A stretch of 64,000 nt of DNA from positions 17,636,783 to 17,700,782 of the forward strand of contig OZ020250.1 in the NCBI GenBank assembly GCA_963971285.1. The letters are read 5' to 3'. The translations under genes and the position numbers were made by a program. The notes under the pieces were generated by a model, which was not told where the DNA came from, did no database searches, and saw nothing but the letters and a program-made list of their open reading frames with translations. This stretch comes from Astropecten irregularis (Eukaryota; Echinodermata; Asteroidea; Paxillosida; Astropectinidae). Shown piece by piece: positions 24,111 through 27,100 of this stretch; within the stretch, counting starts at the first letter, position 1; every line of letters starts with the position of its first letter.

Positions 24111-27100
24111 ATGCCGGTAGGTTGGGGGAAAAATATGTAGGCAATAAAGTTATAGGGGGTAAGGCCTATGTTTTTATTTTGGCAGTGGATATTTTGCTGG
24201 TGACGGTGTTTTCTGATTGGTCACTACCCATGAAAACGATATTCCGCCGGAACAGTAAGCATCTTCTGGGTTGTTTTCCAATAATTTTATCTGAATGTCG
24301 GCACCACTCACAACTTTTTTCGAAACCAATACCCTTTTAGCGGCTGATGAGTCCGTGAACGGACGAAAATGCATTCCCGCTTCTAATTAGATATTTCGAG
24401 CCCAGATTTGAGTCTTTTGTCAATAGGCCTTACTGCAAAAAATAGCGCATAAGTGAAACTGCAAAGCACTATGGGATCGAAAAAGGGACAAAAGTGCCAC
24501 TCGTGGTGGTGATCGGATTACATGCTTCCATTGAATTCCATCATACATTTTCTATTTGCCTCCTTTTCAATCCCATCATGCATGATAATTTGATATTTGC
24601 GATTAGGTCTATTGATGTCGTGTAGGGGTTAGCCTATGTGATACATTTACCAGTGGTATAACTTGCTGGTGAGTAACAAGGGTTATTTCTCATCTGGGGG
24701 AAATCCCTTACCAGTAATGTTGACTCGAACATAGGCTAGCTACAGCAGTACAGCCTGAATGTAAGTTATGGATGGTGTTTCATGCCCCAGTAACCCAGCT
24801 TGAACATCGAAGACTGTAGTCTGTACATCATGTCAGGGAGTAGTCTTGGTGCACGACGTTGTTATTACTCAAACGTACAAACCGATTCCCCTCACTGACC
24901 TGACGCACTTACATGAATGTAAAGACCTCTCTCTAACAGCGTCTTGGGAATCCTGTAAAGGCTGTGAGTTGCGTGCGCTCCTCGTTATGTAGCGCGCTAC
25001 AACGTTTCCATGACACACTGTTGAATATGTATGATTACCTGCACTGGCCTGCATGCATGGACATGTACATGTACGTGTATGTTAATTGGCTGTGCTTGAC
25101 TTAAAAAGTAACGCATGCGCAGCAATGCTGCAACCTGACTACCTGAGAAACAGAACATGGGGGATAATTTGTCTTCTTCTGTTTTCTTTCAGCTCGCTAG
25201 AGATCTGCTTAACCCCAGCCTCGACGCTGAAAAGCGCAGGCACAAGAAGAAGCGCCTCGTACAGAGTCCCAACTCCTACTTCATGGATGTCAAGTGCCCA
25301 GGTAACAGCGACATGATTTTATCACATTCTCATGCTATTATTTTTGTTGTCATATAAACCCATCCACTGATCTGAGTTTTCAGTCAAGCATTTGGAGAAA
25401 ACAGTCATGAAAAATAGAGGGATTTCACATTAGCGCCGCTTGCGCATATATCCGTATCGAAAACGAGGCTCTCTGTGCTACACTGTGGCTGCGGCCACTC
25501 AACACCATACAACCTGCATGAGATACACGAATATCACACTCTCAGCTCAGATAGTGTTGAGGTGCTTCGCTCTAGCAGACCATGGAAGTGCATTGTATGT
25601 ACACACACTTACATGTTTGAGAAGCGAACACAGACAGCCTTGCTTTGGAATGTGGAAGTTTGCAGATCAATATTCTAAACGCATCTTAGTGGAATCCCTC
25701 TTTACAGATTTTAAATAAGTGACACAAATTTTTTTTAAACGCTTCTTTCTTTATTGTACAAAATGTGTAAACAGTATGAACGGTGAAAATGGGTTTGCAG
25801 AAAGAAGCCTTGCTTTGCAGTTTGGAAATGGATGATATCACATTGAACTTTGAAGAACTCTCGGGAAAATACAGTAGCTGAGATACAAGGCCTTTTGAGA
25901 AGCTTTTCCATGCGTGTCGCTTACATGTGCAGGGATGACGTGCTGAACAATTTACATTGTTACACTGATGTGATGATTTAGTTCAATATGCGCCAGTCAG
26001 TCCACTTATTTGCAATACTGCCCGTTTTTAATCCGTAAACTTTTGCAACTGCAAACCTTCACTATGACTCCTTATCAATATTGATTATATATTTTCCCAA
26101 GTGAGGGAGTTGATTCTTTGGTTTTTAATTAAAAAACGCGTAGGAATGTGCATTTGGTAATGATTGCATGTACATGTACGGCGGAACGCCACTATACCAA
26201 ACACCGCTATAGACCGATGGTACAAAATACTGTCCGCCATTACTGGTGTGTCCCCGCCCGTATTTTGTCCGGCAACAAAAGAATTTACGCTTCGCAGCAC
26301 TCTATAATTGCAGGGTGTATGCCCCATGATTAGGGGATGTACACCCTGCAGTATCAAGTGTGGCGGACGTAAATCCTTTTGTTGCCGGACAAAATACGGG
26401 CGAGGACTCCCCAGTAATGGCGGGTGTTTTTTACCTCCATGTTTGCGCCGTCGGATCGGTGTACACTGAACATGATCCTTGTTTCCAAATGTTTGTGTAC
26501 AATACATACCCAATATGGTTCTTTAAAGACAATATCTGTGCATCCTACCCTGTTCGTTATAGCAGCGTTCCACTGTACATGTTGTGTACAAGAAGTTAAT
26601 GATGTCTTGTCACCTTCATAATTTGCATCTAATTAGGAAAAGTTGATGTGACTTGACATGTTGTTTGCTCGTTGTTTTTAAATTGTTTTTTAGGTTGCTA
26701 CAAGATCACGACTGTGTTCAGCCATGCTCAGACAGTGGTTCTCTGCGTTGGATGCTCTACCGTCCTCTGCCAACCAACAGGCGGCAAGGCTAGGCTCACA
26801 GAAGGTACAAACGTCTCTTCACGTTGATTAGAAAGTTATGCATATCGTGCTAAGGCCCAGGGCTTGACACTAGCTGCGGTGTCCTGGTGGGCCACCAGAG
26901 ATAGACGTATGGCTACCATTATTTACAGAAAGTTTCTGTGCCCTGATCGGGCAACCATTAAAAAAGCCCGAAACCAAACCAAAAACCACACCCTTTTCTA
27001 CATTTACATTGCCGACCTGCAATATTTGTAGCTTTTTGGAATAGTGCTGGGCAAAATTCAGCAAAATTCGACATTCAGCTTCTATCAAGATGAAAAAGAC

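What the first reader, a model, noticed from the sequence alone, without database searches (positions are those of the whole stretch)
24339..24381. Complete small hammerhead ribozyme in unit B
CTGATGA, a 5-bp helix II closed by TGAA, GAAA, a minimal helix III over the palindrome ATGCAT and a TTC cleavage triplet with a 5-bp helix I satisfy every invariant hammerhead position. The palindrome in helix III fits the dimer-cleaving hammerheads of Penelope-like elements. It is present only in unit B, inside the presumed first intron of RPS27-B, so a processed RNA here could affect that gene.
Basis: partly seen in the sequence, partly recalled or inferred. Interest (0 to 1): 0.72.

Follow-up and report, generated by a model that had tools for sequence, protein, structure and literature searches.

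The report
Hammerhead ribozyme in retrotransposon fragment

Summary
The motif at 24339-24381 is real: a strict hammerhead descriptor finds only this site in the window and 1 hit in 400 random windows. Rfam scores it below cut-off (19.2 of 52 bits), but intact relatives score about the same.

The window's own genome (475.7 Mb) holds 36 sites within 3 mismatches of the 33-nt core, 20 exact; the control pattern gives 0. In full copies the ribozyme lies ~118 nt after the reverse-transcriptase ORF of a Penelope-like element (PLE); it also marks each unit of a tandem array with ~2.4-kb spacing. The window copy is a 133-nt fragment (24250-24382) with a 29-nt deletion, ending 6 nt past the cleavage site, in intron 1 (24117-25192) of RPS27 copy B; copy A lacks it. 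An effect on RPS27-B is unsupported.

Side result: parent and sister PLE families show no GIY-YIG endonuclease nearby (0 of 18 and 0 of 15 loci; 16 of 19 for more distant relatives), yet copies lie inside chromosomes. Genomic copies appear to stem from RNA not cut by the ribozyme. No RNA or cleavage data were available.

The parts
24339..24381 (+). Minimal type I hammerhead ribozyme; predicted cleavage after C24376
   Evidence: the 90 bits are partly by construction, since this copy was in the model's alignment
24250..24382 (+). Fragment of a Penelope-like element: sequence just upstream of the hammerhead (93% identity over 72 nt, then a 29-nt deletion) plus 60 of 60 nt identical, ending 6 nt past the cleavage site
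24369..24374 (+). Palindrome ATGCAT in helix III (AATGCATT with its neighbours), the possible dimer interface
24172..24233 (+). Low-copy repeat upstream of the fragment; also upstream of the hammerhead copy in L049, and in part at two further places without the hammerhead
24111..24116 (+). RPS27-B exon 1 coding part (ATGCCG), followed by the donor GTAGGT
24117..25192 (+). RPS27-B intron 1, which holds the ribozyme 222 nt from the donor
25193..25301 (+). RPS27-B exon 2 ([37 protein letters not shown]..)
   Evidence: boundaries by splice-site reading
26690..26809 (+). RPS27-B exon with the S27e domain match

Best explanation
The site is a 133-nt fragment of a Penelope-like retrotransposon in intron 1 of one of two tandem RPS27 copies. 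In full copies of the parent the hammerhead lies about 118 nt after the reverse-transcriptase stop codon and about 240 nt before the usual 3' end; in the tandem array a transcript would pass one hammerhead per unit. Two hammerheads could share the 8-bp palindromic helix III and cut as a dimer (inferred). Most genomic copies keep sequence on both sides of the cleavage site and end near +240, so they were copied from RNA not cut there, with reverse transcription presumably starting inside the next unit, as shown for the PAc element (inferred here). The window copy has lost the outer helix I and the 3' side of the helix I internal loop; I expect weak or no cis cleavage and no effect on RPS27-B (inferred).
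For: 36 core sites in the genome, 20 exact, control 0. RT-bearing copies L033 and L041 with the hammerhead just downstream. RT homologous to a GIY-YIG PLE. Array on C9 with core-to-core spacings 2382, 2382, 2172 and 2382. The window match to the element covers 24250-24382 only. 28 of 30 loci run on at least 190 nt past the cleavage site unbroken, and 18 of 30 end at +237 to +242. 0 of 41 matches start at the first base after the cleavage site. Unit A lacks the fragment.
Against: No activity or RNA data. The Rfam cut-off is not met. Base-pair changes in the family give no covariation support: 0 two-sided changes, covariation score 0.070 against 0.074 in shuffles. The argument that the window copy is weaker is indirect: by energies the monomer hammerhead is 5.8 kcal/mol above the best fold both in the window copy and in an intact copy, and reviews say that PLE hammerheads in general lack the usual tertiary contacts (passages). 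The 133-nt core part is still perfectly kept in the window copy.
Confidence: 0.82

Rival explanations
1. A co-opted intronic ribozyme: it cleaves intron 1 of RPS27-B during transcription, or in trans with PLE transcripts, and changes the output of copy B relative to copy A.
For: Sense orientation in intron 1, 222 nt from the donor; the minimal core is intact and its 33 nt are identical to 19 other copies; intronic hammerheads conserved in amniotes are reported (passages of PMC6155905).
Against: Truncated and internally deleted; only one copy in the window; the monomer hammerhead fold is disfavoured. Conservation across species could not be tested.
Confidence: 0.06
2. A retrozyme remnant: a small non-coding hammerhead repeat that spreads through circular RNA.
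For: Type I hammerhead in a tandem array; units without the RT exist.
Against: The array unit is 2382 bp with a 228-aa ORF, against RNAs of about 170-400 nt in retrozymes (PMC7229834 abstract and passages); the hammerhead also lies in RT-bearing elements; 0 of 41 matches start at the cleavage site.
Confidence: 0.04
3. A chance motif.
For: Rfam score below gathering; the loose motif is not significant.
Against: 1 descriptor hit in 400 random windows; 36 places in a repeat family against 0 for the control.
Confidence: 0.01

Closest known systems
Small (minimal) type I hammerheads of Penelope-like elements (Cervera and De la Pena 2014; Lunse, Weinberg and Breaker 2017; neither paper held, known here from citations and review passages)
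   Same: Type I core, very short helix III, palindrome suited to dimers, tandem occurrence in PLEs.
   Different: The intact copies here have an outer helix I behind an internal loop; the window copy is a solo truncated fragment.
PAc, the Poseidon element of Anolis carolinensis (PMC11167929, passages)
   Same: PLE in tandem repeats with a hammerhead; insertion ends set by internal reverse-transcription starts, not by hammerhead cleavage.
   Different: PAc has a C-terminal GIY-YIG endonuclease and its hammerhead overlaps the ORF start; here no GIY-YIG was found and the hammerhead lies about 118 nt after the RT stop codon.
Endonuclease-deficient PLEs and Terminons of rotifers (PMC3846280 and PMC6431247, passages)
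   Same: PLE without the endonuclease, with a hammerhead near the 3' end (Terminons).
   Different: Those are largely tied to chromosome ends and telomeric repeats; the copies here lie inside contigs and no telomeric repeat run was found in the fetched loci.
Metazoan retrozymes (PMC7229834, passages)
   Same: Type I hammerhead in tandem repeats; palindromic weak helix III in the axolotl.
   Different: Retrozymes are short and non-coding; the units here are 2382 bp with an ORF.

Membership tests
Minimal type I hammerhead of Penelope-like elements | Conserved core CUGAUGA, helix II, GAAA, U-H cleavage site, helix I open-ended | tested here: met
Minimal type I hammerhead of Penelope-like elements | Very short, palindromic helix III | tested here: met
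Minimal type I hammerhead of Penelope-like elements | Association with a PLE reverse transcriptase | tested here: met
   met for the parent family; the window copy carries no RT
Minimal type I hammerhead of Penelope-like elements | Self-cleavage, as monomer or dimer | not testable with these tools
   energies only
Rfam Hammerhead_HH9 (RF02275) | Score at or above gathering (52 bits) | tested here: not met
   19.2 bits; family members 19.2-19.3; not filed as HH9
Penelope-like element in the broad sense (parent) | Reverse transcriptase homologous to PLE RTs | tested here: met
   29% over 281 aa, E 4e-37, to an RT with GIY-YIG; no tree with named PLE clades could be made
Penelope-like element in the broad sense (parent) | Tandem or inverted partial copies (pLTR-like arrangement) | tested here: met
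   C9 array; head-to-head copies in L033 and L035
Canonical EN+ Penelope-like element | C-terminal GIY-YIG endonuclease | tested here: not met
Endonuclease-deficient telomeric PLE (Athena/Terminon type) | Absence of the endonuclease | tested here: met
   a divergent or unrelated nuclease in ORF1 is not excluded
Endonuclease-deficient telomeric PLE (Athena/Terminon type) | Location at chromosome ends, with telomeric repeats | tested here: not met
   no repeat run in 52 fetched loci; 29 of the 30 loci L001-L030 lie on contigs of 12-39 Mb, at least 1.2 Mb from an end; L020 is on a 22-kb contig
Retrozyme | Short non-coding unit bounded by hammerhead cleavage sites | tested here: not met
   2382-bp unit with a 228-aa ORF; 0 of 41 matches start at the cleavage site

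The most novel reading that the evidence does not exclude
The parent belongs to at least two related lineages of Penelope-like elements in one genome that lack a recognisable GIY-YIG endonuclease, keep a hammerhead (parent) or hammerhead-like motif (sister) downstream of the RT, carry, in the parent lineage, an ORF1 followed by a histone-mRNA-like stem-loop, and yet insert inside chromosomes and form tandem arrays, from RNA left uncut by the ribozyme. Hammerhead retention would then be independent of both endonuclease-driven and telomere-driven insertion.
Probability: 0.45. Interest if true: 0.5.

Novelty: new member of a known kind. Interest (0 to 1): 0.3.

Why it matters
The window copy looks like ordinary transposon debris, and knowing that closes a false lead about RPS27 regulation. 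The parent family is more useful: a review seen here calls the role of PLE hammerheads unknown (PMC7761336, passages), and this genome offers a tandem array, solo copies and a sister family whose genomic ends argue against ribozyme-defined insertion templates. If the endonuclease loss is real, the family also departs from the statement that endonuclease-deficient PLEs are largely confined to chromosome ends (PMC3846280, passages).

Tried and rejected
Rfam as arbiter: does not separate this site from family members; one array copy (L031:6570) was not listed at all up to E 10. Rfam family search of the own genome: nothing rang, nor in the controls. tRNA scan: none. Model R1 was built with a misplaced bracket string and not used; R2 replaced it. 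R2 did not find the sister family's hammerhead-like place in L052 (its best match, 11.7 bits at 359-387, is the outer helix alone), nor did Rfam. The sister motif therefore rests on its sequence, its repetition (9 exact and 3 near places, control 0) and its fixed place after the RT; its pairing, drawn by hand, is loose (A.G or A-U next to GAAA, two G.A mismatches in helix I). PDB sequence search for RT and ORF1 gave nothing useful. Structure prediction was not used, because the tool's text does not name loci of the genome search or the fetch from genomes among those allowed. PMC5785218, PMC4209133 and a DOI recalled for a paper on permuted-domain PLEs are not held. Searches bearing on non-telomeric endonuclease-deficient PLEs listed 2, 20 of 32, 2 and 1 papers; I judged most by title and opening of the abstract and saw no counter-example. 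A search on PLE, histone and stem-loop listed 8 papers, none on this by title. That the fragment travelled inside a foldback or MITE (69-nt perfect inverted repeats around it in L049; shared deletion and upstream repeat) is possible but unproven: the right arm is absent in the window.

Full report
The observation. The 43 nt at 24339-24381 hold a minimal type I hammerhead as described: helix I AGCGG/CCGCT, CTGATGA, helix II GTCCG-TGAA-CGGAC, GAAA, the palindrome, and T24375-C24376 as U16.1-H17. A strict descriptor finds only this site in the window, on both strands, and one hit in 400 first-order random windows of the same length. Rfam gives 19.2 bits against a cut-off of 52; family members in full elements score 19.2-19.3, so that model does not see this variant.

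The family. The window lies in a 475.7-Mb genome. The 33-nt core occurs there at 36 places with at most 3 mismatches, 20 of them exact, the window being one of these; the control pattern gives 0. A DNA search with window 24150-24400 returns 41 rows: 38 cover the hammerhead part and 3 only the upstream repeat. The tool calls such counts lower bounds. A pattern with GTCC/GGAC stems finds 30 places, all with sequences of this family.

The parent element. In L033 and L041 the hammerhead core starts 118 nt after the stop codon of a 716-718-aa frame with an RVT_1 match; it contains RYRDDI. In L041 a 230-aa frame, here called ORF1, precedes it. The RT is 29% identical over 281 aa (E 4e-37) to an RT of the same genome that carries a C-terminal GIY-YIG domain (PF01541, E 3.5e-6). 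I take this as placing it among Penelope-like elements; no tree with named clades was possible. A second form on C9 is an array of five hammerheads spaced 2382, 2382, 2172 and 2382 bp, whose 2382-bp unit has a 228-aa ORF1-like frame and lacks the part of L041 that encodes most of the RT. Head-to-head copies occur in L033 and L035.

How the ribozyme relates to insertion. I examined 30 of the 36 places. 28 of 30 continue in family sequence at least 190 nt past the cleavage site without a break. The exceptions are L003, interrupted at +15 and resumed at +10, and the window copy, which stops at +6. 18 of 30 end at +237 to +242, 7 run past +242 to the end of the 300-nt query, and 5 end at +6, +190, +190, +224 and +245. 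In a search with 300 nt across the cleavage site, 0 of 41 matches begin at the first base after it. These copies were therefore templated by RNA not cut at that site. This agrees with the PAc element, where reverse transcription starts internally and hammerhead mutants still insert (passages of PMC11167929). What the ribozyme does for the element stays open.

Anatomy. Intact copies extend helix I beyond an internal loop: AUACC pairs with GGUAU. Over 12 distinct rows of 26 aligned copies (26 of 30 loci; four near-identical array or cluster neighbours were left out) 94.6% of cells pair, against 27.5-37.7% when the partners are slid; there are 0 two-sided changes, and covariation is no higher than in shuffles. 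Relatedness, not structure, may explain this. Helix III is two A-U pairs over UGCA, and AAUGCAUU is invariant in the 26. The lowest-energy monomer fold is not the hammerhead: -13.4 kcal/mol against -11.3 without and -7.6 with helix III for the window RNA, and -16.6, -14.5 and -10.8 for an intact copy. A palindrome-paired hammerhead dimer scores -31.9 for the window RNA (best free dimer -35.4) and -38.3 for the intact one (best -41.8). Energies therefore allow dimers and do not separate the window copy from intact ones.

The window copy. Only 24250-24382 derives from the element: 93% identity over 72 nt, a 29-nt deletion, then 60 of 60 nt identical up to six bases past the cleavage site. The partner of outer helix I and the 3' side of the internal loop are missing. 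Whether that loop makes tertiary contacts is not known; reviews say that PLE hammerheads usually lack them (passages), so my expectation of weaker cleavage is an inference. The same deletion and the same upstream repeat occur at C19:12486423 (L049), where the fragment lies between 69-nt perfect inverted repeats. The two copies probably share an ancestor.

Gene context. Exon 1 of RPS27-B codes ATGCCG at 24111-24116, and exon 2 starts at 25193. S27e domain exons lie at 13990-14109 and 26690-26809 (converted to window coordinates). The ribozyme is on the sense strand of intron 1, 222 nt from the donor. The matching region of unit A lacks it and has divergent sequence of its own there. Nothing tested here shows an effect on the gene.

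Side result. RT homologues fall into three identity groups. I reduced the 67 rows to 52 loci and compared them with 147 GIY-YIG matches (a capped list). A GIY-YIG lies within 1.5 kb at 0 of 18 loci of the parent family (71-100% identity), 0 of 15 of a sister family (43-51%) and 16 of 19 at 31-35%. Many of the 18 and 15 are partial copies. The 718-aa parent RT has no GIY-YIG match at E up to 10; for the sister I read one copy only, its last 240 aa and three frames after it, also without. The sister has a hammerhead-like motif at 9 exact places, each about 230-235 nt past the end of an RT match, and 3 near places; its pairing is loose and neither R2 nor Rfam finds it. No run of telomeric repeats was found in the 52 fetched loci, and 29 of the 30 loci L001-L030 lie at least 1.2 Mb from the end of contigs of 12-39 Mb. 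Endonuclease-deficient PLEs are described as largely confined to chromosome ends (passages of PMC3846280). The four searches showed no counter-example in what they listed.

Verdict. The motif is real and the Penelope link is right; the copy is a truncated fragment and an effect on RPS27-B is unsupported. The parent family deserves a look of its own.

Noticed in passing
L041:7015-7058 (-), L033:7621-7664 (+), L031:5727-5770 and 8109-8152 (+): A histone 3'UTR stem-loop-like element (Rfam RF00032, 25.5 and 23.6 bits, gathering 34, E 0.0035 and 0.018) lies just after the ORF1 stop of the parent PLE, as in histone mRNAs. The exact stem-loop GGCTCTTTCAGAGCC (loop one base shorter than the usual one, recalled) occurs 13 times in 8 of the 22 loci searched. 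A weaker hit at L031:1336 (19.9 bits) lies outside the array.
   Followed up: partly
L052:876-940; places on C9, C11, C18, C19: A sister PLE family (43-51% RT identity) carries a CTGATGA..GAAA hammerhead-like motif about 160 nt after the RT stop codon; 9 exact and 3 near places, control 0.
   Followed up: partly
L045 (C29:6421025), L017; likewise L020/L047 (C36): The hammerhead fragment directly follows sequence that reads FADDVMLV (read by eye, not translated by a tool), an RT motif of another retroelement; L045 also has a frame with an ALOG domain (E 1.2e-15). The fragment seems to sit in another mobile element.
   Followed up: no
L046 (C30:5163404 and 5164986): Two hammerhead fragments 1582 bp apart, each beside a 326-aa frame; the one scanned is a rhodopsin-family GPCR (7tm_1, E 2.8e-38). 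This looks like a tandem duplication of a receptor gene that carried the fragment along.
   Followed up: no
window 9353-23240 against 23479-33248: Tandem duplication of a unit of more than 10 kb that holds RPS27, with blocks of 87-97% identity and both S27e exons open.
   Followed up: no
L003 (C8:37027607): The element tail is interrupted at +15 and resumes at +10 about 250 nt later, as if a small insertion had duplicated a 6-nt target.
   Followed up: no
L049:5210-5278 and 5870-5938: Perfect 69-nt inverted repeats enclose a hammerhead fragment that shares the window copy's 29-nt deletion: a possible foldback or MITE carrying a PLE end.
   Followed up: partly
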